In this document: positions 5,318-60,680 of the stretch, in pieces | Position numbering within the stretch: the stretch's first letter is position 1 | Layout of the letters: each line of letters starts with the position of its first letter | NCBI GenBank assembly: GCA_903916255.1 | Contig: CAIWVW010000007.1 | Location: forward strand, 1 to 64,000 | Length of the DNA stretch: 64,000 nt | Origin: an uncultured Bacteroidota bacterium | GTDB taxonomy: Bacteria; Bacteroidota; Bacteroidia; JABEUT01 | Reading direction: 5' to 3' | The notes under the pieces: generated by a model | The model's input: the letters and a program-made list of their open reading frames with translations, nothing else | Told to the model about the DNA's origin: nothing | Database searches by the model: none | Translations under genes and position numbers: made by a program

Positions 5318-5385
5318 GTTGAAAGTTGAAAGTAGAAAGTTAAAACTAAGTATAAAACACTTTAAAACTTTGCACTTTAAACTGA
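5318..5385 (+). repeat. Heptamer array with inverted partner
   Basis: Four head-to-tail 7-bp units at 5318-5345 (gttgaaa, gttgaaa, gtagaaa, gttaaaa), then a 12-base spacer, then inverted-sense units at 5358-5385 (cacttta, aaacttt, gcacttt, aaactga). The two halves can pair imperfectly. It lies in the leader of the tRNA-Leu transcript. Confidence 0.7.
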
Positions 5386-5395
5386 ATACTGTACT

Positions 5396-5479
5396 GCCCG
5401 GATGGCGAAATTGGTAGACGCACCACTTTGAGGGGGTGGCGCCAGTAATGGTGTGCGAGTTCGAGTCTCGCTTCGGGCA
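5396..5479 (+). tRNA. tRNA-Leu (anticodon GAG)
   Basis: Class II tRNA of 84 nt. Acceptor stem 5396-5402 (GCCCGGA) pairs with 5472-5478 (TTCGGGC, one G-U), discriminator A at 5479. The anticodon stem CCACT/GGTGG encloses the loop TTGAGGG, giving anticodon GAG at positions 34-36. A long variable arm and the T-loop GTTCGAGTC are present. The CCA end is not encoded. Confidence 0.93.
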
Positions 5480-5493
5480 CAGATAAGGTGAAA

Positions 5494-5559
5494 GTGAAAA
5501 GTTAAAAGTGGAAAGTAAAATTCACTTCACTTTCAACTTTTCCCTTTTAACTTTTCACT
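5494..5559 (+). repeat. Heptamer array with inverted partner between two tRNA genes
   Basis: Units at 5494-5521 (gtgaaaa, gttaaaa, gtggaaa, gtaaaat) followed by five opposite-sense units at 5525-5559 (the last two tttaact, tttcact). The arms 5493-5508 and 5544-5559 are a perfect 16-bp inverted repeat, so the spacer between the two tRNA-Leu genes could fold into a stem. Confidence 0.75.
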
Positions 5560-5565
5560 GATATA

Positions 5566-5649
5566 GCCCGGTTGGCGAAATTGGCAAACGTTGCGGTCTC
5601 AGAAGCCGTTGGAGTTAAATCCTTAAGAGTTCGAGTCTCTTACCGGGCA
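5566..5649 (+). tRNA. tRNA-Leu (anticodon CAG)
   Basis: Class II tRNA of 84 nt. Acceptor GCCCGGT (5566-5572) pairs perfectly with ACCGGGC (5642-5648), discriminator A at 5649. The anticodon stem GCGGT/GCCGT (with G-U pairs at both ends) encloses CTCAGAA, giving CAG. Variable arm and GTTCGAGTC T-loop present; no encoded CCA. Same acceptor class as the preceding tRNA-Leu and probably co-transcribed with it. Confidence 0.93.
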
Positions 5650-5822
5650 CAGCACACAACAAGGAAAATCAGGTTAAGTACAGCTATGGGTATAGGTGGT
5701 CTTGATTAAAACGGCGTATTAAATCGGTAACAAGCATCGGAAATCCCCGTTAGAATTAGGGTAATTTGTCAGTTAAGGGCAAAAATATGTTCTATTCTGT
5801 CAGTTATGTTGTAAAAGATTTT

Positions 5823-5830
5823 TATATTTG
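5823..5830 (+). promoter_or_regulatory. -7 promoter box (TATATTTG)
   Basis: Exact TAnnTTTG match ending 15 bases before the ATG at 5846. It excludes the in-frame TTG at 5828 as start, because that codon lies inside the box. Confidence 0.5.
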
Positions 5831-5845
5831 TGCATCTCTCTTAAT

Positions 5846-6766
5846 ATGAAGAAAATACTACTTTTTTCATTTTTGTGTTTAGCCGCCCCTTTTGCAGGCT
5901 ATTCGCAATATGACCTTAACCACACGCTTAACCGCACTGAATGGTCCGGCGGGCTGGGGCTTTCACAGTTTTTGGGTGATTTGGGCGGTTCGCCTCAGGT
6001 TGGTACTCACTTTTTACACGATTTTAACTTTGGCGCCATCCGTTATGCAGGTTATTTGGGCTACCGCAAGCGCCTTAGCCATGCCTGGTCACTGCGCGGC
6101 ACCCTTACCATTGGAGAGGTATATGGAAACGATAAACTTAGCAGCAACAACTATAGAAGGAACCGTAATCAAAACTTCCGTTCCATTATCATTGAGCCTT
6201 CTGCACAATTCGAATATCACTTTTATCAATACGACCAACCGGGCCACCGTTACAGTATCAGGCACGCACATGGATTTAAAACCCTTGCACTCGATGCCTA
6301 CCTTTTTGCCGGGGTAGGGGGCTTTTACTTCAATCCTCAAGGCCAGTTGGGCGGTAGCGGACCGTGGGTTAATCTGCGCCCTTTAAGCACTGAAGGCGAA
6401 GGCTTACCCGGCGGACCACCGGAATATTCACAGTTTGCATTTTCTATTCCTGCCGGAATAGGTGTAAAATACCTTATAGATATACAATGGAGCGTAGGAT
6501 TGGAATTCTCAGACAGGCTTTGGACAAGTACCGACTATATCGATGATACGCACGGAAATTATTTCAGCGCGCAGGAAATAGACCAATACAAAGGCCCTGT
6601 TGCAGCTGCATTCTCGCATCCGGTGCTTGGCTTAATTCCCGGTCAGGATTTGGTGAATACCGAAAGAGGAGACCCAACCCACAACGATTCGTATATGTTC
6701 ATGTTCTTTAACGTGAATTACCGTCCGAATCCTTATCACCGCCACAGGAGCAGGGCTAAGTTTTAA
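5846..6766 (+). CDS. PorG-like outer-membrane beta-barrel protein (DUF6089 family)
   Basis: A 306-residue protein with a clear signal peptide (MKKILLFSFLCLAAPFAGYSQ) followed by a beta-rich barrel. The stretches WSGGLGLSQFLGDLGG, GVGGFYFNPQGQ and LRPLSTEGEGLPGG match the DUF6089/PorG family, an outer-membrane component associated with type IX secretion and gliding in Bacteroidota. That fits the five T9SS cargos in this window, although no other T9SS core gene lies nearby. I chose the ATG at 5846 over an upstream TTG because the -7 box covers the latter and the signal peptide starts here. The end of the protein is basic (YHRHRSRAKF). It is convergent with the next gene, with nine bases between stops. 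Confidence 0.75.
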   Translation: MKKILLFSFLCLAAPFAGYSQYDLNHTLNRTEWSGGLGLSQFLGDLGGSPQVGTHFLHDFNFGAIRYAGYLGYRKRLSHAWSLRGTLTIGEVYGNDKLSSNNYRRNRNQNFRSIIIEPSAQFEYHFYQYDQPGHRYSIRHAHGFKTLALDAYLFAGVGGFYFNPQGQLGGSGPWVNLRPLSTEGEGLPGGPPEYSQFAFSIPAGIGVKYLIDIQWSVGLEFSDRLWTSTDYIDDTHGNYFSAQEIDQYKGPVAAAFSHPVLGLIPGQDLVNTERGDPTHNDSYMFMFFNVNYRPNPYHRHRSRAKF

Positions 6767-6775
6767 AAGCTTTTA

Positions 6776-7999
6776 TTAAAACGTATAGATAAGCAGACCG
6801 CTTTCCAGCTTGGGTTCAATCCAGGTGGATTTAGGTGGCATTTCCTTGCCTGAATTGGCCACTTCAATAAGTTCTTCGAAGGATACCGGATAAAGGCAAA
6901 AGGCAGCGGCAATTTTTCCTGAATCAACCGCTTTTTCTAGTTCTTCCGGTGATTTTATGGCAGGGATAAATGAAATTCTTTTGTCGTTTCTCAAATCTTT
7001 TATATCCAATATGGGCGAAAGGATGTAATCGGAAAGCACGCTTACATCTAAACTGTTCACAGTATCTTTAGCGGCATGAATGATGCCTCCTAAATCAATG
7101 CTATACCATTTTTTAGCGAGATAAACCGAAAGGGAGTTTTTATTCAGAGGTTCCTTTGCCGTATCGATAGGCGTGATTTTAAACTTCTTTTTCAATTCAT
7201 TTAGAAATGAATCGGGCGTGTGCCCGTTCAAATTCTGAACCATACGGTTGTAGCTGAAAATAGTTAACTCATCATCGGCAAAAATTGCTGCGGTGAAAAA
7301 GTTATAGGCTTCGTTTCCGCTGTGGTTCGGATTAATTGCTTTTCTCGCTTCCGCTAACCTTGCCGATGAGGCTGCGCGATGGTGGCCGTCGGCAATATAT
7401 ATGGCAGGTATATTCTTAAACAGGTTTTGAATATGTTGTATTTCGTCTTGCTTGTCAATTATCCAAAGTGTGTGGCTTACCCCATCAACCATATAATCAT
7501 ACGTTGCAGCTTCTTTTGTTTTTGCATTCAAGATGGCATTCAGTTCCTTATTATGCGGATAGGTGAGGCAAACAGGCTCTGCATTAAATTCGCATACATC
7601 CAGGTATTCTTTTAGCTTTTCTTCGCGCTGCGCAAGGGTTTGCTCATGTATTTTTATAACATTGTTTTTGTAGTCGTCCACCGATGCCAGCCCAATAAAA
7701 CCTGTATGGTGCCTGCCATTTTTTATTTGCCGGTAAACATAAATACACGGGTTTGTTTCTCTGATAAATATATTTCGGGAAACAAATTCCTGCAATTTAT
7801 TTTTAATGGCATGATATCGCTCAGGTGTATGTTGAGTTGCCATTTCCGCCGGGTTTATTACATGCAAAAATGAAACAGGGTTGGCGGCAAGGATTTGTTT
7901 TATCTCCTCTTTGGTATATCGTTCAACCGAATGGGTGGCAATCTCCGCCACTTTTTCGGTGGCAGGCCTTAGGGCTGAAAATGGATTGATGATAGACAT
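6776..7999 (-). CDS. DUF1015 family protein
   Basis: A 407-residue cytoplasmic protein with no signal peptide. It begins with the family's usual opening (INPFSALRP), has the central motif YIADGHHRAASSARL and the following stretch YNFFTAAIFADDELTIFSYNR in the expected order, and is close to the usual length. DUF1015 proteins are widespread but have no settled biochemical function; some genomes place them near serine-biosynthesis genes, which is not the case here. The His-His-Arg motif suggests a catalytic or ligand-binding site, but that is inference. A -7 box (8008-8015) sits only eight bases upstream of the ATG, implying a very short or absent leader, or a start slightly downstream. Confidence 0.8.
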   Translation of the reverse strand: MSIINPFSALRPATEKVAEIATHSVERYTKEEIKQILAANPVSFLHVINPAEMATQHTPERYHAIKNKLQEFVSRNIFIRETNPCIYVYRQIKNGRHHTGFIGLASVDDYKNNVIKIHEQTLAQREEKLKEYLDVCEFNAEPVCLTYPHNKELNAILNAKTKEAATYDYMVDGVSHTLWIIDKQDEIQHIQNLFKNIPAIYIADGHHRAASSARLAEARKAINPNHSGNEAYNFFTAAIFADDELTIFSYNRMVQNLNGHTPDSFLNELKKKFKITPIDTAKEPLNKNSLSVYLAKKWYSIDLGGIIHAAKDTVNSLDVSVLSDYILSPILDIKDLRNDKRISFIPAIKSPEELEKAVDSGKIAAAFCLYPVSFEELIEVANSGKEMPPKSTWIEPKLESGLLIYTF

Positions 8000-8007
8000 A
8001 TGCGCTG

Positions 8008-8015
8008 CAAAAGTA
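8008..8015 (-). promoter_or_regulatory. -7 promoter box (TACTTTTG)
   Basis: TAnnTTTG match on the minus strand, eight bases ahead of the DUF1015 ATG. If used, the mRNA would be nearly leaderless. Confidence 0.35.
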
Positions 8016-8020
8016 TTTTT

Positions 8021-9112
8021 TTACCTGACTAAAGTGAATGAGCGTTTCCAATTTATTCCGTTCCAGCGCGATTTTCCTAAACTTTGTTTGAGCGATAAAA
8101 ATATAAAAGAAGCCTTGCCAACAATATGGTCTTCGGGTACAAAGCCCCAGTAGCGCGAATCGTCGGAATTGTCGCGGTTATCGCCCATCATAAAGTAATA
8201 GTTCATTTTAAAAGTGTACGAATCGGCATATTTCCCGTCGATAAAAACAGAGTCGTGCGATACATTCATTTTATGCTTTTCATAAACTGTAATTATTCGT
8301 TCATATAGCAGTAGGCTGTCAGTATTCAGTTTTATGGTTGCCCCTTTTTTAGGGATTATAAGCGGGCCATAGTTATCCTTGTTCCAAAAGGAAAACTTAC
8401 CTCCGGGGAACATGTCAGTGGTTGCATATTCCACCGATACACGGGTAACGGATAATATATTGCTCATTTTGCTTACAGAATCAGCTTCGGCTTCTGTTAA
8501 TAAAAACCGGTATTTGTTGCCGGATGAAACCAATCCGCCTTCGGTAACATGCAGTGTATTGTAAAGGTATGAGCCGAGGCTGTCTATCATTGCATATACT
8601 TCGTAGGAATACTTTGCTTTGGGTGGTGATGCAACCGTTTTCCCATTTATTAAAACTGCCTTGTCGGTTATGGTTAACGTATCGCCAGGCAGGCCAATGC
8701 AGCGTTTCACAAAATTGGCTTTCTTATCGACAGGGGCTCCGTCTTCCGCAGGAAAATTGAAAACTACTATATCGTTTCGTTGAATTTTTCGGTAGCCCAG
8801 CAAGCGGAAATAGGGAAGTTCAATCCATGTTAAATAGGATGGGAATGTTTCAGAAAACGGCAGTTTATTTTTAGTGAATGGAATAGCGAGTAATGTTTCC
8901 GGGAATCTTGGCCCATAAGCTATTTTATTAACCCAGATAAAATCGCCAGCCAACAGTTCATCTTCCATGGATGTGGAAGGGATGAAATAGGTTTCGCCCA
9001 CAAAATTACGCAGGAAGACAACTGTAAGCGTTAGCGCCAGCAGCAAGAGGAATAGTCGCTTGTGGTTACTTAGTCGTAAGTTGTTAGTTGTAAGTTGTGT
9101 GTCATTACCCAT
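8021..9112 (-). CDS. lepB: Signal peptidase I
   Basis: A 363-residue inner-membrane protease that removes signal peptides from exported proteins. One N-terminal hydrophobic segment (about residues 19-36) precedes the catalytic region. The nucleophile is Ser48 in IPSTSMEDELLAGD and the general base Lys136 in FVKRCIGLPGDTL; box E is MGDNRDNSDDSRYWGFVPED near the C-terminus. A long insert of about 110 residues between the Lys box and box E is common in Bacteroidota. The first 16 residues are unusual: residues 3-14 are encoded by a heptamer array (9073-9107), giving a polar TQLTTNNLRLSN leader in front of the membrane anchor. An alternative start inside the array is not available as ATG. The DUF1015 gene follows in the same direction after 21 bases, but with its own -7 box. 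Confidence 0.93.
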   Translation of the reverse strand: MGNDTQLTTNNLRLSNHKRLFLLLLALTLTVVFLRNFVGETYFIPSTSMEDELLAGDFIWVNKIAYGPRFPETLLAIPFTKNKLPFSETFPSYLTWIELPYFRLLGYRKIQRNDIVVFNFPAEDGAPVDKKANFVKRCIGLPGDTLTITDKAVLINGKTVASPPKAKYSYEVYAMIDSLGSYLYNTLHVTEGGLVSSGNKYRFLLTEAEADSVSKMSNILSVTRVSVEYATTDMFPGGKFSFWNKDNYGPLIIPKKGATIKLNTDSLLLYERIITVYEKHKMNVSHDSVFIDGKYADSYTFKMNYYFMMGDNRDNSDDSRYWGFVPEDHIVGKASFIFLSLKQSLGKSRWNGINWKRSFTLVR

Positions 9113-9159
9113 ATAGAATACTATTAGTTGAGCCTTATGACTTACGACCTATCACTTAC
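9073..9159 (+). repeat. Heptamer arrays overlapping the lepB start
   Basis: Five 7-bp units at 9073-9107 (gtcgtaa, gttgtta, gttgtaa, gttgtgt, gtcatta) lie inside the lepB reading frame directly after its ATG. Four opposite-sense units follow at 9132-9159 (gccttat, gacttac, gacctat, cacttac) in the upstream spacer. The pair flanks the translation start of lepB. Confidence 0.7.
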
Positions 9160-9167
9160 CGCTGTCA

Positions 9168-9971: not shown

Positions 9972-10020
9972 TGAAAAGGTTTAGAATAGGAGATTTACGA
10001 ATAAGCCTTCAATTTTGTTT

Positions 10021-10028
10021 CAAAAATA
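10021..10028 (-). promoter_or_regulatory. -7 promoter box (TATTTTTG)
   Basis: TAnnTTTG match on the minus strand 50 bases before the ATG of the barrel gene ending at 9971. Confidence 0.4.
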
Positions 10029-10125
10029 CAAATTTACAAATAGTGGGGGAATTGGGGGATTAGAGGGTGACCGTTTTTTATTTTACCATCCACGGGCAAA
10101 AATACTTCTCTCAAAAAGGTGTCTG

Positions 10126-10188
10126 GCAAAGGCGCAAAGCACGCAAAGTGAAAGCATGAATTTTCTTAGCGAGCTTTGCGTCTTTGCG
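10126..10188. repeat. CAAAG-type inverted repeat
   Basis: The left side carries CGCAAAG words (gcaaaggcgcaaagc, 10126-10140, then another acgcaaag) and the right side the complement (gctttgcgtctttgcg, 10173-10188). The arms pair over about 15 bp with one mismatch. This 'gcaaaggcgcaaag' element is a known type of dispersed intergenic repeat. It sits in the 250-base gap between two minus-strand genes. Confidence 0.7.
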
Positions 10189-10223
10189 GGAAAAAATTTG
10201 TCATCTTTACCAGAAATAGGTAA

Positions 10224-12191: not shown

Positions 12192-12204
12192 CAACTAATA
12201 GCTA

Positions 12205-12239
12205 TTTTATTTTTCGTTTTTCATTTTTGGCTTTTCATT
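12205..12239 (-). repeat. Heptamer array at the end of a coding region
   Basis: Read on the minus strand, five units: aatgaaa, agccaaa, aatgaaa, aacgaaa, aataaaa. They encode the last residues (NEKPKMKNEK) and the stop codon of the membrane protein that ends at 12207. Confidence 0.65.
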
Positions 12240-13859
12240 TGTTCCTATTATTAGCAGCAGCAAAATAAACATAAAAGGAATAACCACCGACTTGTAACGT
12301 TCAATTCCGCCTAAAATGGGCGTTACCAGCCCGATTAAGATTAACATTGCCATACAATAAGTAAGGCAGAATAAAACCAAATCCATATTGCCAATGGGGC
12401 GTTTAATAAAGAAAAGCGCTACCGTAAAAAGAAGCAATACAAAGATGTTTTCGCCGCAATAAATGGCCTGCATGGCCGAATGAATTTGCCAGGGATAGGG
12501 CAGAAGCATGGAAACATCCAGCGCAACAGGAATATGGGCAATCAGGCTGAGAATAGTTGGTTTTATGGGGTCAATAATAATGCGGCTATTGGCGGTTTCT
12601 ATATAGTTGTAAACCCAATAAGCGGTGCTATCGGTGGAGGCGGTGTGCAGCGTATCCTTATTTCCAAGCTGAATCAGGGAATAGGCAGTCCCTTTTCGCA
12701 AAGCATAGGGAGCTCTGTGGTTGGTTTTATATTCGGAATACCAAAATGGTTTTCCTGCCACATACTGTATTCCCTTTTTGAGAACACTGTCTGCCCAAGT
12801 ATTCAGCGGGAGTATGTTAACCGTATCTTTCACTGAAATGAAAGCATATTTAGTGGAGTCTTTCATATTCTCCAGATACACGCCACCTTTACTTATCCGA
12901 TTAAAATCAGTTTGCTTATCCGATAGCATTTGCAAGGGATTATGCTTGCTGCCAAGCAGTGAAGGAAATACAGCCGGCTGAATATATATAACAAGAACAA
13001 GGATATAACAAATAAGAGGATGTCTTCCAAAAAATCCGGTTCTCTTAATCAGGAATTGTGCCACTAAGCCGGGCAAAAGGCAAAGCAATACATATGCTTT
13101 TACTTCATAAAGAAGGATAACACCTGCAATGAAATATACGCTGTAAGATACAATCCTTTCCCTGGCCACTGACCATTGACCATTGACTGCTTTGAAAAAA
13201 TAATAAATCGTTGACCCTAAACCAAGCCATACAAGCCCTTCTTTCAGTATGCCTGAACTCCATAATATGACAGAAGGGAAAAGAAAAACAGCCGCAAAAA
13301 GAAGGTTGCCTCCGGTTACGGGAAATGGATAAAAAGCTTTGAAAATATAAGTAAGCCCTGTAAGCGCAATAAAGCACATAAAAATTACATGCACGCCATA
13401 ATGCCCCTGTGAAAAAAGCATGAAAAAGGCATTCAGGCGGATAATAAAATGGCTGTTATTATATAGTGTCGAGTCATATCCATTATCCCAACTGTTCATA
13501 GTATGATAAATGGTTTGGTAGCGGCTGTTAGCGTCGCCAATGCCGGTAAGGAGCGTTAGATAATCTTTTACACTTGTGTGCAGCGTGGCGAAAATCATTT
13601 TACCGTCGTCGTAATATTTGAATACATCGCTGGTAATGCGGTTTTTGTAAATATGGGTATAGATATACCAAAGGCCCATGCCAAACAACAGTTTCAGGCA
13701 GAACGCACCCAGAAAATAGATGTTGCCGAACGTACCTGCCCTGAACCACTTGCTTTTTAAAATAAAAACAGCAAATAATAAAAAATAAAACAGGCAGAAG
13801 AGTGTATCGGACATCCGGCAGGGTATATATTTTTCAAAAATAGATAAAAAGAGTTCCAT
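12207..13859 (-). CDS. Polytopic membrane protein of unknown function
   Basis: A 550-residue protein with roughly ten to twelve hydrophobic segments, two of them before residue 70, and a soluble region of about 120 residues (about 300-420) between membrane parts. The general design recalls polysaccharide polymerases or lipid-linked sugar transferases, but I see no diagnostic motif and give no function. Two heptamer repeats lie inside the frame: one encodes the short polar loop NGQWSVARE between membrane segments (13163-13190) and one the charged C-terminal tail (12205-12239). The permease gene follows 15 bases downstream. The frame starts at the ATG 13857-13859. Confidence 0.65.
   Translation of the reverse strand: MELFLSIFEKYIPCRMSDTLFCLFYFLLFAVFILKSKWFRAGTFGNIYFLGAFCLKLLFGMGLWYIYTHIYKNRITSDVFKYYDDGKMIFATLHTSVKDYLTLLTGIGDANSRYQTIYHTMNSWDNGYDSTLYNNSHFIIRLNAFFMLFSQGHYGVHVIFMCFIALTGLTYIFKAFYPFPVTGGNLLFAAVFLFPSVILWSSGILKEGLVWLGLGSTIYYFFKAVNGQWSVARERIVSYSVYFIAGVILLYEVKAYVLLCLLPGLVAQFLIKRTGFFGRHPLICYILVLVIYIQPAVFPSLLGSKHNPLQMLSDKQTDFNRISKGGVYLENMKDSTKYAFISVKDTVNILPLNTWADSVLKKGIQYVAGKPFWYSEYKTNHRAPYALRKGTAYSLIQLGNKDTLHTASTDSTAYWVYNYIETANSRIIIDPIKPTILSLIAHIPVALDVSMLLPYPWQIHSAMQAIYCGENIFVLLLFTVALFFIKRPIGNMDLVLFCLTYCMAMLILIGLVTPILGGIERYKSVVIPFMFILLLLIIGTNEKPKMKNEK
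13163..13190 (-). repeat. Heptamer array inside a coding region
   Basis: Four units on the minus strand: gcagtca, atggtca, atggtca, gtggcca. The array keeps the frame and encodes AVNGQWSVA in a loop of the membrane protein. The word 'atggtca' is unlike the gttgaaa type seen at other loci but has the same 7-bp period. Confidence 0.65.
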
Positions 13860-22021: not shown

Positions 22022-22035
22022 ATTCTTTTTTATTG

Positions 22036-22070
22036 ATTCCTAATTCCTAATTTTTAATTCCTAATTAATT
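22036..22070 (+). repeat. Heptamer array
   Basis: Five units: attccta, attccta, attttta, attccta, attaatt. It occupies the leader between the -7 box at 22079-22086 and the PadR start, so it would be transcribed as part of the 5' UTR. No inverted partner seen. Confidence 0.65.
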
Positions 22071-23574: not shown

Positions 23575-24171
23575 TCAGAACTTTTTCACCAGCGTAAAGC
23601 CCGGCGTAAAGCACATGGTGCCGCTTAACGGATTAGGCATAAGGCTGGGCGTAAAATGTAACGATATATCATCCGATACATTAAAACTGTGCATTTGCGC
23701 ATCTACATTGGCATCCACAATTTGCAAAAGATATATTCCGGCTGCAATAATAACGGAAAGGTCCCTGTCTTTGTGGTAATAGTCTATAATACTCGATAGC
23801 TCGGAAGACGAATAGAGATTATAATACTGGTCGATGCCGCCGTTGGTGCGTATCGTTAATGCATTATTGTAGTTATTGTAATACTGTTGGTTGGTAATTA
23901 TAAAATAAGCGGCAACGCCTATACCGACATAAACAATGGGCAATTTCCAGTATTTTTTATTGTAAATCTGCCCAAGGCCGGGGCATACTGCCGAATAGAG
24001 CATTGCTTTAGCAGCGGAATGAGGATGAGTTTTTTTAGGTTGAACACCGGTAGAATCTTGTGCCGAAAGGGTAAAGGAAAACAAACATGCAAATAGAAAA
24101 ATTGAAAATGGCAATTTAACTTTCCACTTTTCACTTTTAACTTTCCACTCGCTTGTTTTATTGACCAGCAT
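23575..24171 (-). CDS. DUF5683 domain protein
   Basis: A 198-residue membrane or envelope protein. DUF5683 features are visible: KAMLYSAVCPGLGQIYNKKYWKLP, followed by a hydrophobic segment (IVYVGIGVAAYFII), a YNNYNNAL stretch and YLLQIVDANVDAQMHSFNVS. A signal-like hydrophobic stretch is at residues 20-36 (LPFSIFLFACLFSFTLSAQ). The residues in front of it, SEWKVKSEKWKVK, are encoded by a heptamer array (24114-24148) and supply the positive n-region. The ATG at 24169-24171 overlaps the end of parB by 14 bases; no other ATG precedes the hydrophobic stretch. In many Bacteroidota this gene follows parA-parB, as here. Function unknown. Confidence 0.8.
   Translation of the reverse strand: MLVNKTSEWKVKSEKWKVKLPFSIFLFACLFSFTLSAQDSTGVQPKKTHPHSAAKAMLYSAVCPGLGQIYNKKYWKLPIVYVGIGVAAYFIITNQQYYNNYNNALTIRTNGGIDQYYNLYSSSELSSIIDYYHKDRDLSVIIAAGIYLLQIVDANVDAQMHSFNVSDDISLHFTPSLMPNPLSGTMCFTPGFTLVKKF
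24114..24148 (-). repeat. Heptamer array encoding a signal-peptide n-region
   Basis: Minus strand: gtggaaa, gttaaaa, gtgaaaa, gtggaaa, gttaaat. Three heptamers equal seven codons, which gives the visible seven-residue periodicity in WKVKSEKWKVK of the DUF5683 protein. Confidence 0.75.
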
Positions 24172-25057: not shown

Positions 25058-25065
25058 CCTTTTCT

Positions 25066-25130
25066 AATTGTAAATTGTGAATTGTAATTTGTGAATGAAT
25101 TTCATTTAGCATTTACAATTAACAATTTAG
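25066..25130 (+). repeat. Heptamer array with inverted partner between parA and parB
   Basis: Units at 25066-25100: aattgta, aattgtg, aattgta, atttgtg, aatgaat; opposite-sense units at 25110-25130: catttac, aattaac, aatttag. Together they fill nearly the whole parA-parB spacer and could fold. Confidence 0.7.
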
Positions 25131-25138
25131 CATTGTTT

Positions 25139-36294: not shown

Positions 36295-36325
36295 TTTTCT
36301 CCGTGGTAGCCTAATCTACCGTTTA

Positions 36326-36376
36326 ATAAGTGAAACCCACCATTCGATAAGTGAAACCCACCGTATAATAAATGGG
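36326..36376. repeat. 21-bp direct repeat
   Basis: The word ATAAGTGAAACCCACC occurs at 36326-36341 and again at 36347-36362, a 21-bp period, with a degraded third copy after it. It sits in the 236-base spacer between the two giant paralogs, which holds nothing else but the promoter at 36497-36504. Confidence 0.6.
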
Positions 36377-44996: not shown

Positions 44997-45653
44997 ATGA
45001 AAAAAGAAATTCCATTTATTCATCTTCTTTTATGGGCGTTCATTGCCATAGGTATGCTTGATTCATGCCATTCAAGTAAAAAAGCAACTAAATCAAAGCC
45101 TTCTTCCCAAAGTAATGGTCAGCAAAGTACCTACACACCCTCGGCTTTTTCACCCGCAAAGGGCGATAAAAAGAAACGTAAGGCGAAGGAAGCATATCCG
45201 CCGGCAACTGAAGAATCTGGCGTGAAAGAAAGTACAATAGCGGCCAAGTACGCACCCATTCTTGGCGTTTCAAAGAAAGACATTACCAATTACGCGTTGT
45301 ATAAATTCATTGATTCCTGGTACGGCGTTCCCTATAAATTTGCCGGAAGAACCAAGTCCGGGGTTGATTGTTCTGATTTGGCCTCTTTGCTTTTTCAGTC
45401 CGTGTTCGGCATTACAATAGGCGGCAATGTTACCGATATATACCGGCGTTGTATACCCATTAAAGGTTCTGAACTTCAAGAGGGCGATTTGGTATTCTTT
45501 AAAATAAACAGCAAATCACTTTCGCATGTGGGCATATATTTGCAAAACCATAAGTTTGTTCATGCAAGTGTGCATGCAGGGGTTGTAATCAGCGATTTGG
45601 GTGAAGATTACTACCGCAAGTACTTTTGGGGGGCGGGAAGGCTACTCAAGTAG
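44997..45653 (+). CDS. NlpC/P60 cysteine peptidase lipoprotein (C40 family)
   Basis: A 218-residue cell-wall hydrolase. A lipoprotein signal ends in the lipobox MLDSC (Cys24), followed by a Ser/Lys/Pro-rich linker to about residue 85. The catalytic domain has Cys125 in GVDCSDLASLLF, His177 in LSHVGIYL and the third polar site His189 in KFVHAS. Such enzymes cut peptide bonds in peptidoglycan stems, usually between D-Glu and meso-DAP. The stop codon TAG lies inside the first unit of a heptamer array (45650-45716) that also forms the spacer before the convergent purL. Confidence 0.9.
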   Translation: MKKEIPFIHLLLWAFIAIGMLDSCHSSKKATKSKPSSQSNGQQSTYTPSAFSPAKGDKKKRKAKEAYPPATEESGVKESTIAAKYAPILGVSKKDITNYALYKFIDSWYGVPYKFAGRTKSGVDCSDLASLLFQSVFGITIGGNVTDIYRRCIPIKGSELQEGDLVFFKINSKSLSHVGIYLQNHKFVHASVHAGVVISDLGEDYYRKYFWGAGRLLK

Positions 45654-45716
45654 AAAGTAGAAAGTTAAAAGTGTAAAGTAGAAAGGAATAGCCGTTACAA
45701 ACTTTTAACTTTTTAC
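45650..45716 (+). repeat. Heptamer array with inverted partner between convergent genes
   Basis: Five units at 45650-45684 (gtagaaa, gtagaaa, gttaaaa, gtgtaaa, gtagaaa), including the stop codon of the NlpC/P60 gene; opposite-sense units (cttttaa, cttttta) end at 45716. Arms 45657-45672 and 45701-45716 pair over 16 bp with one mismatch, so the element may act as a terminator for both genes. Confidence 0.75.
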
Positions 45717-45727
45717 GGTGCACTTCA

Positions 45728-48182: not shown

Positions 48183-48743
48183 ATGAAATTATCACATTAT
48201 CTTTCTATTGTTGCCATAGCAGCGATGTTTGCTTCCTGCGGACAACAAGGAGCAACAGGACCCGCAGGGCCAACAGGTGCAACAGGCGCAACAGGTGCAA
48301 CAGGCGCAAATGGAGTGGCAAATATAAGTACCAGCACTTATACCGTTACTGCTTCAAATTGGACTGACCCATCTTCCAACACTACTTGGATTTCTTCCTG
48401 GACCGAAGGAGATATTACAGATAATAACAACGATGCCGTTGTTGCTTATTGGAGCATTTCTAGTTCCGGATGGTTGGCATTGCCGGTAACAAGTTTAATT
48501 AACCCCGGTGATGAAATGAGTTTTGGATATGATAACAATATTGTTACTTTCTCTTATTATACTGGAGGTACCTTTACTGCTCCGCCAAGTTCTTACAGTA
48601 ATTTTACTACTATTTACTATAAGGTTACGGTTATCCCTCCTGCAATTCAGGCTAAATATCCCGGTACCAACTGGCAAAATGCTTCGGAAGTGCAACGAAT
48701 ACCTGAAGTTCAAGCTGCATTGAATAATGCCGATAACAGATAA
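48183..48743 (+). CDS. Collagen-like repeat lipoprotein
   Basis: A 186-residue lipoprotein: signal MKLSHYLSIVAIAAMFASC with lipobox FASC, Cys19. Directly after it comes a short collagen-like tract of eight Gly-x-y triplets (GATGPAGPTGATGATGATG and on), then a C-terminal beta-rich domain of about 140 residues ending in an acidic-Asn tail. Similar small proteins with a GxT tract behind the lipidated cysteine are widespread in Bacteroidota; the tract probably acts as a stalk or trimerisation rod. The globular domain has no family I recognise. The gene is monocistronic, with its own promoter and strong terminator (48762-48788). Confidence 0.75.
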   Translation: MKLSHYLSIVAIAAMFASCGQQGATGPAGPTGATGATGATGANGVANISTSTYTVTASNWTDPSSNTTWISSWTEGDITDNNNDAVVAYWSISSSGWLALPVTSLINPGDEMSFGYDNNIVTFSYYTGGTFTAPPSSYSNFTTIYYKVTVIPPAIQAKYPGTNWQNASEVQRIPEVQAALNNADNR

Positions 48744-48870: not shown

Positions 48871-48887
48871 TTCTTAAATAAACAACT

Positions 48888-54031: not shown

Positions 54032-54039
54032 TAGGTTTG
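54032..54039 (+). promoter_or_regulatory. -7 promoter box (TAGGTTTG)
   Basis: Exact TAnnTTTG 16 bases before the ATG at 54056. Confidence 0.45.
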
Positions 54040-54055
54040 CAAAAAAAATGAAATC

Positions 54056-54946: not shown

Positions 54947-54947
54947 T

Positions 54948-55451: not shown

Positions 55452-55538
55452 GCGTTAAATTTTCGCTAAAATATAAATTCTGCGCATAATCTGTAAATTG
55501 ACGTGAGGTAATATAATGCAGGGTTTCCCGTTATGTTG

Positions 55539-55546
55539 TATATTTG
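55539..55546 (+). promoter_or_regulatory. -7 promoter box (TATATTTG)
   Basis: Exact TAnnTTTG 19 bases before the ATG at 55566. Confidence 0.5.
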
Positions 55547-55565
55547 AAAAGCTAAACCTATCCGG

Positions 55566-58376
55566 ATGAACTATAAAAAGCTACCTTTTTTTATTTCTTT
55601 TTTTGCAGTTTGTTTATTGGTATTTGGCACCCGAAGTGCGGTTGCTCAATCTGCAGATAATTCCTCTGCCGAGAATTTCGAGAACACCTATATTCATTGG
55701 TTTTTTGCATTGGATAAAACAAGACTAACCAACAGTATTTCCCGTTCCGATTTTGATTTATTTACACGCTTTTCCCAAAAGGCAATCGATTCGGTAAGGG
55801 CTGATTTTATTCGGCGGATTGGTAATAATGAAATAACAACTTCCAATGTTGGGAAATACGAATCAGTATTGGAAAAGGCCATTTTTTCACTTTACGGAAA
55901 ATATGAAACGATAAAGGAGCTGTATCCTTCATCGGTGGATGAATTCAGGAATGTAAAAGCGCCATACCTTTCTTCAAACTGTAATTCCGCTTGCAATAAT
56001 ATTGATTTTGAAAGCGGAAACCTATCGGGCTGGAATGCCTATTACGGTGTTAATGAATCGAGTACCACCGGTAACAATATAGCACTTATTACAGGCGGTC
56101 CGGCCGGGGCGGTTACCCATGCTGCAAATGATGCGCTTACAAGCACTCCGGGCTATTATAATAGTGGTTCTGTCGGGCCGAATCCCAGCCCTGATTACCA
56201 GATTAATATTACTTCAGGCAGCCGAGGCGATGCAATTATACCTTCTATTCCTGTCGTATCCCCTTTTGGGGGACAGTATTCGGTTATGGTGGGTGACAGC
56301 ACCCTCGTGAATTACGGTGTTGCTATTCTTTCCCAAACTTTTTTAGTGGGCACGTCCAATGCAAATTTCACATATCAATATGCCGTTTTTTTAGCTAACC
56401 CTATACATAATTATTACCAGCAGCCTTTTTTTAAAGTTGCAGTGCTCGACGGCAGCGGAGATACCATACCCTATTGCGGGGAATATAGTGTGGTTTCGGG
56501 TAATGGAACCCAGAAATTCGACAGTACAATATACAATGAAACTTATCCGGATGGGAACACGGCTGCTTTTACTGTTTATTATAAAAATTGGAGCATTGTA
56601 AATGTTCCGCTTGGAAAGTATGTGGGGCAATGCGTAACCGTTGTTTTTGAAGCTGTAGATTGTGCTTTGGGCGGACATTTCGGCTATGCCTATGTAGATG
56701 CTTCCTGTGCGCCGCTAAATATTATCAGCTCATCTCAGGTGTTTTGCGGACAGGACAGTATTCAACTTACAGGCCCTGCGGGAGAGAGCACATATTTCTG
56801 GACAGGGCCACCCGGAGGTATAATATCCAGCGATTCCGCACGAACTGTAAGTATCATCGATACGGGTAATTATACATTAATTGTGACACCATTTACAGGA
56901 GCTACCTGCAATGATACGCTTAAAATCCATATCGGGAAAACTACTGGCACACCGCCTAAACCAAGTTTTTTTGCAGATACTATTTGTGTTGGAGGCACTA
57001 CTAACTTTACCAATACGTCCAATCCTATTTCAGGCGCCAGTTTTTATTGGGATTTTTACAATTTAGGAAGCTACCAGGATTCGAGCGTAAACCCAACATG
57101 GAAATATAATATACCGGGAATTTACACCGTAAAATTGCACGAGGTATTGAACGGCTGTGGAATGGATACCCTTATTAATGTTGTGGTGGATAGCCTTGTT
57201 ACCACGTCATTCATTTCCGATACTTCCTGCATACGCGATACTGTTTACTTTACCAATACCTCAACTGGGGGAGCTACCTCATATCTTTGGAATTTCGGAG
57301 ACCCTTCATCGGGTGCCAATAACACATCCACTGCCACAAACCCTTTTCATGTGTATCAAACTGCGGGGACGTATACTGTTACATTAGTTGGGCATAACCC
57401 GGGCAAATGTGGTGATTCGGTGAAAGAAATTATGGTGCTATTGCCCAGTTTAAAGCCTAATATCAGCGGAACAGACAGTGACTGTGCAGGCGATATGGCA
57501 ATTATTACAGCCAGTGGGGGAACATCTTATAGGTGGAGCACAGGCGCCGTTACTTCTTCCATAAAAGTTTACCCGACTACCACAACCACGTATACCGTAA
57601 AAATTTCTAACAGCAGGTGTTACCTTGATACCACATTTACTGTAATTGTTAAGCCTACCGGTTCAGGTGCTGTTTCAGGAAAAGGCTCGGTTTGTTTTGG
57701 CGATTCTATTGTATTAACGGCTACCGGAGGCGGAACTTATTTATGGAATACAGGTGCCACAACCAGTTCGATAATCGTTATTGCCAATAATTTTAAGGAT
57801 ACGGCATATTCCGTTTTCATAAGCAATGGCGATAGTTGTGTAACTATTCATAAACACATAAACATCGACTCCATTTCGGGTTTTGCCTGTTGCAGCGATA
57901 CAATTTTTAGCGGAAATTCCACCACACTTTCCGGCAGTGGAAGTACTACTTATTATTGGGAACCACCGGGCGGTTTAAGTTGCGATACATGTCCCAATCC
58001 GATAGTTAGCCCCACAGTTACTACTACCTACACATTAATATCCACAACAAATGCAGGCTGCTTGGCACAATCATTAGTTACGGTTACCGTTGAAATACCC
58101 TGCGATGACTTTTTTGTGCCGAATGTATTTACCCCGAACAACAATGGGATAAATGACACGTATTTAATAAAGGTGAAGTTTATGTCGGATTATCAAATCG
58201 ATATTTTTAACCGGTGGGGCAAAAAGGTATTCAGTTCAAATAATCCTGATAATCCTTGGGATGGAAATATAGATGGAGCGCCAGCCAGTTCAGGTGTGTA
58301 CTATTACATAATCCGCTCTACCTGCGAAAATGGAAACTCTTTTGAAAAGCATGGCTTCCTGCAATTGATACGGTAG
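55566..58376 (+). CDS. PKD-repeat surface protein with T9SS type B (CHU_C) sorting domain
   Basis: A 936-residue secreted protein. Signal peptide: residues 1-27 (ending AVAQ). Residues about 140-390 form a beta-rich region (NIDFESGNLSGWNAYYG, resembling a lectin-like fold). PKD-type repeats follow: NPTWKYNIPGIYTVKLHEV and SYLWNFGDPSSG with FHVYQTAGTYTVTLVGHN; then tandem Ig-like repeats with YRWSTGAVTSSIKV and YLWNTGATTSSIIV. The C-terminal 85 residues are the gliding-motility type B domain: FVPNVFTPNNNGINDTY, YQIDIFNRWGKKVFSS, SSGVYYYIIR. Type B proteins are exported by T9SS but usually not A-LPS anchored in the same way as type A. It is likely an adhesin. Confidence 0.88.
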   Translation: MNYKKLPFFISFFAVCLLVFGTRSAVAQSADNSSAENFENTYIHWFFALDKTRLTNSISRSDFDLFTRFSQKAIDSVRADFIRRIGNNEITTSNVGKYESVLEKAIFSLYGKYETIKELYPSSVDEFRNVKAPYLSSNCNSACNNIDFESGNLSGWNAYYGVNESSTTGNNIALITGGPAGAVTHAANDALTSTPGYYNSGSVGPNPSPDYQINITSGSRGDAIIPSIPVVSPFGGQYSVMVGDSTLVNYGVAILSQTFLVGTSNANFTYQYAVFLANPIHNYYQQPFFKVAVLDGSGDTIPYCGEYSVVSGNGTQKFDSTIYNETYPDGNTAAFTVYYKNWSIVNVPLGKYVGQCVTVVFEAVDCALGGHFGYAYVDASCAPLNIISSSQVFCGQDSIQLTGPAGESTYFWTGPPGGIISSDSARTVSIIDTGNYTLIVTPFTGATCNDTLKIHIGKTTGTPPKPSFFADTICVGGTTNFTNTSNPISGASFYWDFYNLGSYQDSSVNPTWKYNIPGIYTVKLHEVLNGCGMDTLINVVVDSLVTTSFISDTSCIRDTVYFTNTSTGGATSYLWNFGDPSSGANNTSTATNPFHVYQTAGTYTVTLVGHNPGKCGDSVKEIMVLLPSLKPNISGTDSDCAGDMAIITASGGTSYRWSTGAVTSSIKVYPTTTTTYTVKISNSRCYLDTTFTVIVKPTGSGAVSGKGSVCFGDSIVLTATGGGTYLWNTGATTSSIIVIANNFKDTAYSVFISNGDSCVTIHKHINIDSISGFACCSDTIFSGNSTTLSGSGSTTYYWEPPGGLSCDTCPNPIVSPTVTTTYTLISTTNAGCLAQSLVTVTVEIPCDDFFVPNVFTPNNNGINDTYLIKVKFMSDYQIDIFNRWGKKVFSSNNPDNPWDGNIDGAPASSGVYYYIIRSTCENGNSFEKHGFLQLIR

Positions 58377-58388
58377 AATATAAATATT

Positions 58389-58431
58389 AAAAAAGGGAGA
58401 ATGGAAAATCATTTTCCATTCTCCCTTTTTT
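58389..58431. terminator. Strong bidirectional terminator
   Basis: A 21-bp perfect inverted repeat (58389-58409 and 58411-58431) around a single central base, with A-run left and T-run right. In the folded RNA a few central pairs must open to form the loop. It stands between the convergent genes ending at 58376 and 58440. Confidence 0.9.
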
Positions 58432-58439
58432 AATTATTT

Positions 58440-58847
58440 TCAGCCTTGCACTTCCATCGTAATATTCGTGTTCAATACCTTTGAAATAGGGCAATTGGCC
58501 TTTGCATCTTCTGCATGTTTCTTAAAGTCTTCGCTGCTGCAATTCGGAACTGTTCCTTTTACAACTAAGTGAGAATTGGTGATAGCTCCGTTATCAAGTG
58601 TTACGGCGCAAGTTGTTTCAAGTGAAGCGGGAGTAAAGCCTGCTCCGCCCAAAACAAAGCATAGTTTCATGGTAAAGCATCCTGCATGTGCTGCTGCAAT
58701 AAGCTCTTCGGGATTGGTTCCAACTCCGTTTTCAAAGCGGCTTAAATAAGAATATTGGGTTTTGTTAAGTGTGGTGCTTTGCGTGGTAAGGTTTCCGTTT
58801 CCTTCTTTTCCTGTGCCGTTCCATACGGCTGTAGCTGTGCGTTTCAT
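58440..58847 (-). CDS. osmC: OsmC-family organic hydroperoxide reductase
   Basis: A 135-residue peroxiredoxin-like enzyme of the true OsmC branch. The reactive cysteines are Cys57 (AAHAGCFTMKL) and Cys119 (KANCPISKVL); the N-terminal ATAVWNGTGKEGNGNLTTQS and the motif SRFENGVGTNPEELIAAAH are characteristic. It reduces organic peroxides with thiols. A second, more distant OsmC homologue is at 30878. The promoter box is at 58882-58889; the terminator at 58389-58431 ends it. Confidence 0.92.
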   Translation of the reverse strand: MKRTATAVWNGTGKEGNGNLTTQSTTLNKTQYSYLSRFENGVGTNPEELIAAAHAGCFTMKLCFVLGGAGFTPASLETTCAVTLDNGAITNSHLVVKGTVPNCSSEDFKKHAEDAKANCPISKVLNTNITMEVQG

Positions 58848-58881
58848 AGGGTATGAGTAATTAAATGGTTAAGTTATCTGC

Positions 58882-58889
58882 CAAAGATA
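58882..58889 (-). promoter_or_regulatory. -7 promoter box (TATCTTTG) for osmC
   Basis: Exact TAnnTTTG on the minus strand, 34 bases before the ATG. Confidence 0.5.
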
Positions 58890-58922
58890 TGCAATAAATA
58901 ATAACAATAGTTGAAGAGGCTA

Positions 58923-59501
58923 TTATCCTTTAAATGGAGCGATATGTTCTGTAAGTAAAGGAAAAAACGCCATGAAATCGCGGTTGTAGATTTCAGGATT
59001 ATTTTCCAACTCTATAGCCGCACTATCCATCGGGAAATAATATTTCATACGCTTCGACATTCCCGCCAACGCGTCTTTTATATGCTCTTTTTTGCGGTAG
59101 GACAGCAGCCAGTTTTCACGGCTCATATACGTTGAAATAACAAGGCTTTCCTTTGGCATTTTATCCAAATGCTTATTAAGCGTTTCATAGGTATTAATAC
59201 AAAATTCTTCGAGGCTTATTTCGGAAAAAGCACTCCAGTTATTTGCCAAGAAATAATCGTAAAACATGTCGGTTATTACGCCTGAATATTTGCCATAATT
59301 AGGCCGGAGGCGATGCACGCTTTGAAGATAAATGGGATTGTTGTCCGAAAAATAATCCACCTCGCGGTGCATCAGAATACCTTTGCTTATTTTATCAGGA
59401 TAGGTAGAGTATTTGCTCCCTTTTACTGCGTCGGCAATAAAGTTTCCAATTAAAAGTTCTTCATCTTCTCCGGCCAGAAAGAGATGTGCCAAAAAGTTCA
59501 C
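58923..59501 (-). CDS. ACP phosphodiesterase-like protein (DUF479/AcpH)
   Basis: A 192-residue protein of the AcpH family, which removes the phosphopantetheine group from acyl carrier protein in E. coli. The opening MNFLAHLFLAGEDEELLIGNFIADAVKG and the motif HREVDYFSDNNP (metal-binding HD-like histidine and aspartates), and DMFYDYFLANNW are the family's conserved points. Starts with GTG at 59499-59501, as no ATG precedes the conserved opening. It follows the YqgE gene by six bases in the same operon. Confidence 0.85.
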   Translation of the reverse strand: MNFLAHLFLAGEDEELLIGNFIADAVKGSKYSTYPDKISKGILMHREVDYFSDNNPIYLQSVHRLRPNYGKYSGVITDMFYDYFLANNWSAFSEISLEEFCINTYETLNKHLDKMPKESLVISTYMSRENWLLSYRKKEHIKDALAGMSKRMKYYFPMDSAAIELENNPEIYNRDFMAFFPLLTEHIAPFKG

Positions 59502-59507
59502 CTTTCG

Positions 59508-60107
59508 TTAGTTTAGTGTTGGGTCCTCCGGAAAATCGGCCACCATGGAATATTTGCCGCCAAGGTCTTTCAATATGTTTTTCCAGAGGTTGCTGTTGTC
59601 TTTCATCACAAGTGATTTTACCGCCGGGGTAATAATCCATGCGTGTTGTTTCATTTCGCTTTTCAACTGTCCGGCTGTCCAGCCTGCATAGCCTGCAAAA
59701 AAACGGATTTGGGTTGTTTTAACTTTGCCAATTCTAAGCAGGTCTTTCAGGGTTTCGAAATCGCCGCCCATATAAACACCATTCATAATCTCTATGCTGC
59801 CTTCCAGTTTATCGCCAAGGGTATGAATATAAAATAGCAACTCTGTACTAACCGGCCCGCCATAGAATAGTGTGTCCTCAAATTCCGGAAAATCATCGAT
59901 GGCTTGGGTAGGTTTAATAGCCAGTTTACGGTTCAGAATAAATCCCATAGTGCCTTTGTCGCTGTGTTCTGTAACCAATACAACGGCTCGTTTAAACTCG
60001 GGGCTTTCCATAAAAGGTTCCGCCAATAAGAGCACGCCGGGTTCGGGTTTCATCTGTTTTTCGAAAATAGATGAAAAATCAGTTATGTTATCGTGGTTAT
60101 CGGGCAT
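59508..60107 (-). CDS. YqgE/AlgH family protein
   Basis: A 199-residue cytoplasmic protein with the family's motifs: GVLLLAEPFMESPEFKRAVV, VTEHSDKGTMGFILNR, FYGGPVSTELLFYIH and IRFFAGYAGWTAGQLKSEM, plus the C-terminal WKNILKDLGG. Function unknown; in Proteobacteria it is linked to regulation and to the adjacent YqgF, but neither is near here. The start overlaps the ribH end by 11 bases, so translation is likely coupled. Confidence 0.9.
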   Translation of the reverse strand: MPDNHDNITDFSSIFEKQMKPEPGVLLLAEPFMESPEFKRAVVLVTEHSDKGTMGFILNRKLAIKPTQAIDDFPEFEDTLFYGGPVSTELLFYIHTLGDKLEGSIEIMNGVYMGGDFETLKDLLRIGKVKTTQIRFFAGYAGWTAGQLKSEMKQHAWIITPAVKSLVMKDNSNLWKNILKDLGGKYSMVADFPEDPTLN

Positions 60108-60597
60108 TCTCCGTAGTCAGCTTGTTACGTAATTCAATCATTTCGAGGGCTGTATTAGCTGCATCGGCGCCTTTATTACCATGTTTGCCGCCGCTGCGTT
60201 GTTTGGCTTGTTTCAGGTTATCAGTTGTTAAAACGCCAAATATAACGGGAATATTGTGTGCCAGGTTCAATTGCATAATTCCATCGGCTACCGCTTTTGA
60301 TATATAATTGAAATGGGGTGTTTCACCACGGATGATACATCCCAGGCAAATTACCGCATCAGGGGCATAGGTTTTAATGGCCCATTGGGCACCAAGAGGA
60401 AGTTCATAACTGCCCGGTACATTTAAAACTTCCATTGCAAAGGAATCTATTTCGGTATTCTCGAACACGGTAAATACCCCTTCTAAAAGGGCATCGGTAA
60501 CATCCTTATGCCATTGGGAAACTACCACGCAAACTTTCAATTCTTTCCCTGTGAAAAGGGGAGCGGCTTTTTTCTTGTTTGCTTTCCTGGTAGCCAT
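60097..60597 (-). CDS. ribH: 6,7-dimethyl-8-ribityllumazine synthase
   Basis: A 166-residue enzyme of riboflavin synthesis, condensing 5-amino-6-ribitylaminouracil with dihydroxybutanone phosphate. Typical stretches: VVVSQWHKDVTDALLEG, VLNVPGSYELPLGAQWA, CLGCIIRGETPHFNYISKAV with the catalytic histidine, and PVIFGVLTTDNLKQA. The N-terminus has an extra basic stretch (ATRKANKKKAA), common in this phylum. First gene of ribH-yqgE-acpH; no FMN riboswitch is visible upstream. The TPR gene lies upstream on the same strand with a repeat-containing 80-base spacer. Confidence 0.95.
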   Translation of the reverse strand: MATRKANKKKAAPLFTGKELKVCVVVSQWHKDVTDALLEGVFTVFENTEIDSFAMEVLNVPGSYELPLGAQWAIKTYAPDAVICLGCIIRGETPHFNYISKAVADGIMQLNLAHNIPVIFGVLTTDNLKQAKQRSGGKHGNKGADAANTALEMIELRNKLTTENAR

Positions 60598-60605
60598 GTT
60601 AATTA

Positions 60606-60680
60606 GTTAAAAGTTGAAAGTGTATAAAGAAGAAAAGTCCGGGCTTTAAAAACTTTAGGAACTTTTTACTTTACGAACTT
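60606..60680 (+). repeat. Degenerate heptamer array with inverted half
   Basis: Units gttaaaa, gttgaaa, gtgtata at 60606-60626, then a spacer with a GC-rich CCGGGC, then opposite-sense words (aacttta, ggaactt, tttactt) to 60680. A weaker example of the family, between ribH and the TPR gene. Confidence 0.5.

What the first reader, a model, noticed from the sequence alone, without database searches (positions are those of the whole stretch)
5318..60680. A family of 7-bp-period tandem arrays spread over at least nine loci
At 5318, 5494, 9073, 12205, 13163, 22036, 24114, 25066, 45650 (and weaker 60606) there are four or five direct heptamers per array. The word differs (gttgaaa, gtcgtaa, attccta, aattgta, tgaccat, aatgaaa) but the 7-bp period holds throughout, and five of the strong arrays are followed within 4-26 bases by an inverted array. 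Established knowledge: heptanucleotide STRR repeats with this design are described in filamentous cyanobacteria. I know of no named equivalent in Bacteroidota. Constant period with changing word suggests a copying mechanism acting on length 7 rather than spread of one sequence. That is inference.
Basis: partly seen in the sequence, partly recalled or inferred. Interest (0 to 1): 0.75.

Follow-up and report, generated by a model that had tools for sequence, protein, structure and literature searches.

The report
Seven-base hairpins with changing words
Scattered through this Bacteroidota genome and its relatives are short arrays of repeated seven-base words, many paired with an inverted copy and predicted to fold as hairpins; at one spot in six related species the word comes in four kinds while the two halves still match, which would fit a copying process that likely works in seven-base steps.

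Summary
The arrays are real and far above chance. In 864 kb sampled from six species of the genus, 73 arrays have period 7, against 4-16 for each of periods 5, 6 and 8-11. They are genome-wide. (1) Five of the window's ten arrays share one word, AAAGTNN, whose three-unit pattern has 113 (overlapping) sites in the genome against 17 for the reversed pattern. (2) Many arrays are arms of predicted imperfect hairpins with a usual polarity, the arm carrying AGT/AAT first. (3) Similar repeats were already reported from five Bacteroidetes.

The new observation is at an orthologous site. Between two tRNA-Leu genes (next to one of them in one species) six species carry a palindromic heptamer element in four word classes, and the two arms match in word class in each. 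Paralogous gene ends differ mostly by whole 7-bp units. This fits in-place turnover in 7-bp steps, but the copying is inferred and why 7 is unexplained. RAYT transposases, reverse transcriptases and terminator function are not supported. An apparent link to loss of the hairpin nuclease SbcD did not replicate. New variant of a known kind.

The parts
5315..5345 (+). (AAAGTNN)4 arm in the leader of tRNA-Leu(gag); looser inverted arm about 5359-5378
   Evidence: a promoter-like TATCTTTG upstream is judged by a recalled consensus
5491..5520 (+). 5' arm of the palindromic element between the two tRNA-Leu genes (AGTNNAA)
   Evidence: fold -25.0 kcal/mol, z -6.3
5526..5559 (-). 3' arm of the same element
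9066..9103 (+). AGTNGTA array at the 5' end of a signal-peptidase (Peptidase_S26) ORF; inverted partner about 9139-9160
   Evidence: (downstream pairing -24.5)
12201..12240 (-). AATGAAA/AGCCAAA array at an ORF end, period 14 stronger than 7
13158..13191 (-). TCARTGG array inside ORF 12207-13859 (reads ...VNGQWSVA...; no Pfam match); other heptamer words at the same site in G002 (loose) and G007
22029..22067 (-). AATTAGG array just upstream of a PadR-family ORF
24113..24152 (-). AAAGTNN array 5 nt beyond the end of a ParB-like ORF
25059..25133 (.). palindromic AATTGTA/AATGCTA element between a ParA-like and a ParB-like gene; absent in G002, where the aligned flanks abut
45645..45727 (.). palindromic AAAGTNN element between an NlpC/P60 gene and a PurL-like gene; first unit contains the stop codon; corresponding gap 10 nt in G002 and 29 nt in G007
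60606..60680 (.). weaker palindromic AAAGTNN element

Best explanation
These are short seven-base arrays, often the arms of predicted imperfect hairpins, that likely renew themselves in place by copying in seven-base steps, so that period and palindrome would persist while the word drifts. Shown: the period, the 4-6-unit size, the usual arm order, arm matching above shuffled pairs, whole-unit differences between paralogs, and four word classes at one orthologous site with arms matched in class. Inferred: when the strands separate, the repetitive palindrome would fold into a hairpin; arms would pair in register or slipped by 7; gaps would be filled, or loops removed, using the other arm or the neighbouring unit as template. 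That would add or remove whole units and keep the arms alike. Unexplained: why the step is 7, and why one word (AAAGTNN) dominates this genome.
For: Word change with matched arms: at the tRNA-Leu site, RNA duplex energy of 5' with 3' arm averages -23.7 within species and -14.8 between species; 6 of all 720 arm assignments do as well as the true one, as many as there are permutations among the three species sharing a word. Words (my reading): AGTNNAA in G000, G008, G009; AGYTAAR in G007; AATTNTR in G004; AAYTATR in G002. G006 and G010 show none upstream of tRNA-Leu(cag) (by eye). Genus-wide: of the 41 arrays (of 73) with a definable AGT/AAT strand that had enough flank, 32 pair better with their 3' flank than their 5' flank (mean -16.0 vs -10.4), and 0 of 2000 shuffles of the 3' flanks among arrays reach the observed mean. 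Polarity: of 44 plus-strand AAAGT clusters (two or more units), 11 have an inverted cluster downstream within 80 nt and 0 upstream. 7-bp step: seven paralogous gene ends in G000 were aligned; five with similar GC-rich hairpins downstream carry 3, 4, 5, 5 and 14 AAAGTNN units, and two close paralogs (C79:171, C79:2779) differ by one unit in the array. Two others (L132:198, L146:398) share a 20-nt loop but one arm of L132 has become 5 x AGTAGAA. Context: arrays per kb of spacer are alike in tandem (29 in 37.0 kb) and divergent (15 in 18.7 kb) gene pairs and lower in convergent ones (4 in 9.9 kb). Among arrays of definable strand in tandem contexts, 13 are sense and 10 antisense without a mate, 3 and 2 with one.
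Against: No copying event was observed; only diverged species and paralogs were available. Plain slippage plus selection for a hairpin would look similar. Within the shared-word class at the tRNA-Leu site, arms pair as well or better across species, so matching is at the level of the word, not unit by unit. One aligned paralog pair (C79:22562, C79:20355) differs by a single base inside the array, not by 7. In the divergent spacer at G008 91.9 kb, two arrays with unrelated words are conserved in G009 without copy change (2 of 66 array positions differ against 17 of 109 elsewhere, p 0.011), which suggests constraint rather than turnover there. Some neighbouring opposite arrays have different words (L075, L144:4639). 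The G002 tRNA-Leu element has AAC/ACT, not AGT, in its first arm, an exception to the usual polarity, and 9 of 41 arrays pair better upstream. Recurrence of AAAGTNN across the genome is not explained by local copying. The AGT/AAT core is clear in the genus (41 of 73 against 20.5 permuted) but not in other lineages (11 of 45 against 8.9).
Confidence: 0.42

Rival explanations
1. Simple replication slippage at 7 bp (as proposed by Mrazek 2007, quoted in PMC4679880), with hairpins a by-product.
For: Whole-unit differences between paralogs; heptamers reported as the most abundant category of such repeats in most genomes surveyed (quoted); arrays concentrate in spacers, 48 of 73, with ORF coverage 91.7%.
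Against: Slippage alone does not give matched inverted arms, a usual arm order, or both arms of one class with different words between species. 71 of 73 arrays have 4-6 units and lack the long tail expected of free slippage, though the scan cannot see fewer than 4.
Confidence: 0.27
2. RNA or DNA hairpins kept by selection (mRNA or tRNA processing, stability), with compensatory change of the arms.
For: Predicted stable folds at the tRNA-Leu site in six species (z -3.3 to -6.3 against mononucleotide shuffles); one conserved locus.
Against: No clear preference for gene context or orientation; present in one species and absent in another between the same genes, including between the ParA-like and ParB-like genes; variable positions of the arms are often mismatched (by eye); selection for a hairpin does not need a 7-bp period.
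Confidence: 0.16
3. A small mobile palindrome that inserts at gene boundaries and whose copies drift.
For: Presence/absence at parA-parB (75 bp against a 0-bp gap in G002) and at the purL end; a mixed-word AATGCTA/AATTGTA element at two loci in G000 (L055:7522-7621 and window 25059) and a similar one in G004.
Against: No target-site duplication or fixed end could be defined; no excess of arrays at Y1 transposase genes (6 arrays, 4 of them at one locus, in 67.7 kb around 20 of the 32 Y1 matches in the genus genomes searched; background expectation 5.7); no reverse transcriptase match in six genus genomes, three of them under 90% complete.
Confidence: 0.12

Closest known systems
Tandem heptanucleotide repeats of filamentous cyanobacteria (STRR; the name is recalled)
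   Same: 7-bp units; three different heptamers in Calothrix; inverted pairs mentioned for Nostoc GGGGA(C/T)T repeats (PMC4692102, passages)
   Different: Different words; arm-matched word change at orthologous sites was not in the passages read
TAACTGA direct repeats (MacGregor 2015, PMC4679880; abstract, passages and one section read)
   Different: One word; direct repeats with one indirect case in the main genome; there mostly just before start codons
GGGANTN repeats of Xanthomonas (PMC4692102, passages)
   Same: Majority with four units, variable positions inside the heptamer, some inverted pairs
   Different: G-rich, quadruplex-forming; one word family
Geobacter metallireducens predicted regulator sites, class 3: five tandem heptamers, consensus MTYCTGA (PMC2700814, passages)
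   Same: Five tandem heptamers; the site classes are mostly found in pairs (opposite strands stated for class 2)
   Different: Read there as regulator binding sites; one word; not compared between species here
REP elements with RAYT transposases
   Same: Dispersed extragenic palindromes
   Different: Described as 20-40-bp palindromes with a GTAG or CGTC tag (PMC3733652, title, abstract start and passages); no excess of our arrays at Y1 genes

Membership tests
Cyanobacterial-type heptanucleotide repeats (STRR-like) | tandem 7-bp units above chance, genome-wide | tested here: met
Cyanobacterial-type heptanucleotide repeats (STRR-like) | one of the published STRR words | not tested
   published STRR words were not searched for
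TAACTGA repeats | word TAACTGA | tested here: not met
   not the word of any window array; a TAACTGA unit was seen in L189 of another genus; no genome search for it was made
TAACTGA repeats | mostly forward-oriented just upstream of start codons | tested here: not met
   no clear orientation or context bias
REP/RAYT | palindromes flanking a Y1 transposase gene | tested here: not met
   20 of 32 Y1 matches examined, 6 arrays in 67.7 kb, background rate
REP/RAYT | array load follows Y1 gene number | tested here: not met
   20 of 22 genomes have Y1; G239 has 10 matches and 0 array-word sites, G000 has 7 and 130
Intrinsic terminators | enriched between convergent genes | tested here: not met
   4 arrays in 9.9 kb of convergent spacer against about 0.8 per kb elsewhere
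Reverse-transcriptase-made repeats (DGR, retron, group II intron) | RVT_1 gene in the genome | tested here: not met
   no match in G000, G002, G006 (97-99% complete), G008, G009, G010 (57-86%)
Mobile element (MITE-like) | target-site duplication and fixed ends | tested here: inconclusive
   flanks about 15-30% diverged at the sites compared

The most novel reading that the evidence does not exclude
A hairpin-templated copying process with an intrinsic 7-base step rewrites both arms of repetitive palindromes in concert, so that these elements inherit their shape (period, polarity, palindrome) rather than their sequence.
Probability: 0.28. Interest if true: 0.75.

Novelty: new variant of a known kind. 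Interest (0 to 1): 0.52.

Why it matters
Heptamer repeats have been noted in several bacterial phyla, and the papers read here give no settled cause. An orthologous site where the word differs but both hairpin arms still match makes one cause testable: a 7-base copying step acting on hairpins. If true, some repeats are inherited as a shape rather than as a sequence.

Tried and rejected
Stop codon in every unit (all-frame translation stop): 45 of 73 arrays against 36.6 permuted, maximum 46 of 100 permutations; marginal, not pursued.

Sense orientation after stop codons: suggested by AAAGTNN examples, not borne out (13 sense, 10 antisense without mates, whose set includes four stretches fetched for holding AAAGTNN).

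RAYT/Y1 transposase: not supported.

Reverse transcriptase: no match in the six genus genomes searched.

Loss of the hairpin nuclease SbcD as a permissive state: after a look at 20 genomes, the 247 phylum genomes gave load of at least 10 in 1 of 81 SbcD+ and 28 of 166 SbcD- genomes (Fisher 1e-4; within-family permutation 670 of 20000). A replication whose tests were written down before the SbcD states were seen (the loads had been seen) failed in 208 further genomes: 3 of 32 against 31 of 176, p 0.31; within-family 14214 of 20000. At load of at least 1 it was 9 of 32 against 91 of 176, p 0.02. The load counts only two words. Rejected as an explanation. A LexA control search was asked for twice and not answered; it was dropped so that the last search could go to the replication.

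AGT/AAT core as a general rule: holds in the genus, not in other lineages.

Literature: seven searches. Mrazek 2007 was not among the listed papers and is cited through PMC4679880; a 2008 paper on small dispersed repeats in Nostoc is recalled only. PMC4060949, PMC12699852, PMC13155455 and PMC3733652 were searched for terms only and gave nothing on heptamers in Bacteroidota. The comparison of words between species at one site was not found in what I read; that is no proof that it is unpublished.

Odds: after re-checking, confidence was lowered from 0.45 to 0.42 (a one-base indel in one paralog pair; hairpin pairing in many rather than most arrays), and rivals and novel case adjusted slightly.
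Full report
Where this is. The window is bases 1-64000 of contig C7 of a 3.74-Mb, 149-contig genome.

Observation. Lags 7 and 14 are the only clearly favoured ones in the window and in 464 kb of the genome, where one order-3 Markov shuffle gave none at either. With one rule applied to 864 kb from six species of the genus, counts are 6, 12, 73, 7, 16, 4 and 4 for periods 5 to 11. A few of the 73 are A- or T-rich runs that the low-complexity filter let through. Arrays are short: 71 of 73 have 4-6 units (the rule cannot see fewer than 4). By the rows, 39 of them lie in the 464 kb of G000.

Words. Five of the ten window arrays are AAAGTNN, with two variable bases in each unit. That pattern, three units in a row, has 113 exact sites in the genome (overlapping sites in longer arrays counted each) against 17 for the reversed pattern. 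In the 100 exact sites listed the first variable base is A, G or T and never C; in the 82 listed sites of eight genomes of another genus it is T or C in 77, so usage appears lineage-specific. In the genus, arrays carry AGT or AAT at a fixed place in at least 80% of units in 41 of 73 cases, against 20.5 expected when the seven columns are permuted (0 of 200 permutations as high), and this remains when arrays with AAAGTNNAAAGT are removed (26 of 54 against 15.3). In 45 arrays from other lineages it is not significant (11 against 8.9); AGT alone is 5 against 1.6 there. The reversed pattern used as control is itself a frequent heptamer word in some genera.

Hairpins. AAAGT clusters on the plus strand have an inverted cluster within 80 nt downstream in 11 of 44 cases and upstream in none. 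Without asking for a second array, an array pairs better with its 3' than its 5' flank in 32 of 41 cases, and shuffling the 3' flanks among arrays never reaches the observed mean in 2000 trials (both arms of a few elements are counted separately). So a basic element is (ARTNNNN)n - loop - (NNNNAYT)n, and some single arrays may have a degraded second arm. Some neighbouring opposite arrays have unrelated words, and the G002 tRNA-Leu element does not follow the polarity.

Orthologous sites. Between tRNA-Leu(gag) and tRNA-Leu(cag), G000, G008 and G009 have AGTNNAA palindromes, G007 AGYTAAR and G004 AATTNTR; G002 has an AAYTATR palindrome just before tRNA-Leu(cag), the other tRNA being 2.9 kb away. 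Two other species show no element before tRNA-Leu(cag). Arms pair well only within their own word class; inside the AGTNNAA class they pair across species as well as within. Inside ORF 12207-13859 the same site reads TCARTGG in G000, TCAGTWG in G007 and a looser version in G002; protein constraint may act there. The parA-parB element (25059-25133) is absent in G002, and the purL-end element (45645-45727) is reduced to 10 nt in G002 and 29 nt in G007; G009 has other heptamer-like units there. Which state is ancestral is not known. Against turnover, two arrays in a divergent spacer are more conserved between G008 and G009 than their surroundings (2 of 66 against 17 of 109, p 0.011).

Seven-base steps. 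Seven G000 gene ends that appear to be paralogs with a T9SS-type C-terminal domain (my reading of the sequence; not profile-tested) were aligned. Five have AAAGTNN arrays of 3, 4, 5, 5 and 14 units between the stop codon and similar GC-rich hairpins; the closest pair differs by one unit. The other two, with a different hairpin, differ from each other by one base inside the array. Two further paralogous ends share a 20-nt loop but have different arms, one homogenised.

Place and use. Arrays avoid ORFs (48 of 73 in spacers; 12 at ORF edges, 12 inside, 1 at a stretch end; ORFs cover 91.7%), show no excess between convergent genes and no clear sense bias in tandem contexts. This speaks against terminators and against one regulatory role. 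ORFs here are simple open frames of at least 90 codons, not curated genes.

Beyond the genus. 63 of 247 phylum genomes and 90 of 247 class genomes have at least one three-unit AAAGTNN site (the sets overlap). Among 80 named loci around purL, the spacer after purL holds palindromic heptamer elements in a groundwater Flavobacteriia bin (L165) and in Siphonobacter aquaeclarae (L189), and single arrays lie near its end in a few others. G206 has an array with 19 exact TAAAATC units. The period-7 excess is less clean outside the genus: period 7 against period 8 is 25 to 15 in the 80 named loci, 12 to 12 in G206, 5 to 2 in G155 and 6 to 0 in G116.

Mechanism. I commit, at 0.42, to turnover in place in 7-base steps with the arms kept matched by hairpin-templated repair. 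Shown are the outcomes; the enzymology is inferred. What sets 7 is unknown; the only published idea met is a polymerase contact length (Mrazek 2007, quoted in PMC4679880 and PMC4692102). A candidate permissive factor, loss of SbcD, looked convincing in the first 247 genomes and failed a replication specified beforehand.

Novelty. Heptamer repeats, including inverted pairs and units with variable positions, are known in several phyla, and in a few Bacteroidetes. The arm-matched word difference at an orthologous site was not described in what I read; the library is limited to open papers and I read parts of them.

Noticed in passing
window 48183-48743: ORF with a lipoprotein-like start and Gly-X-Y triplets (GATGPAGPTGATGATGATGANG), a short collagen-like stretch coded by a 9-bp repeat.
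   Followed up: partly
window 36318-36371: 2.6 copies of a 21-bp repeat, ACCGTTTAATAAGTGAAACCC, that also occurs (up to 2 mismatches) in L053, L136 and L137 of the same genome, the latter two beside paralogous gene ends with arrays.
   Followed up: partly
L136, L137, L134 (G000 C79, C41): Heptamer arrays (AGTGGTC type) inside the coding part of a secreted-protein-like paralog family, besides the arrays after their stop codons.
   Followed up: partly
L006, L011, L013 (G000 C81, C122): Arrays that read as KVESEKLKVESE-like peptide inside apparent coding sequence; a second array of ATTACTA words follows in L011 and L013.
   Followed up: no
L239:2577-2731 (G206): 19 exact TAAAATC units in a row: long homogeneous heptamer array in another family.
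   Followed up: no
L249:585-1154 (G116): Larger repeats that contain TACTATCGACT-like 7-bp units.
   Followed up: no
L189:6236-6333 (Siphonobacter aquaeclarae): Palindromic element after purL whose units roughly alternate between CGGTTTA-like and CTGTTTT-like words, with a TAACTGA unit in the second arm.
   Followed up: no
window 5480-5565 region in G002: About 2.9 kb separates the two tRNA-Leu genes in G002, against about 70-95 bp in G000 and four relatives.
   Followed up: no
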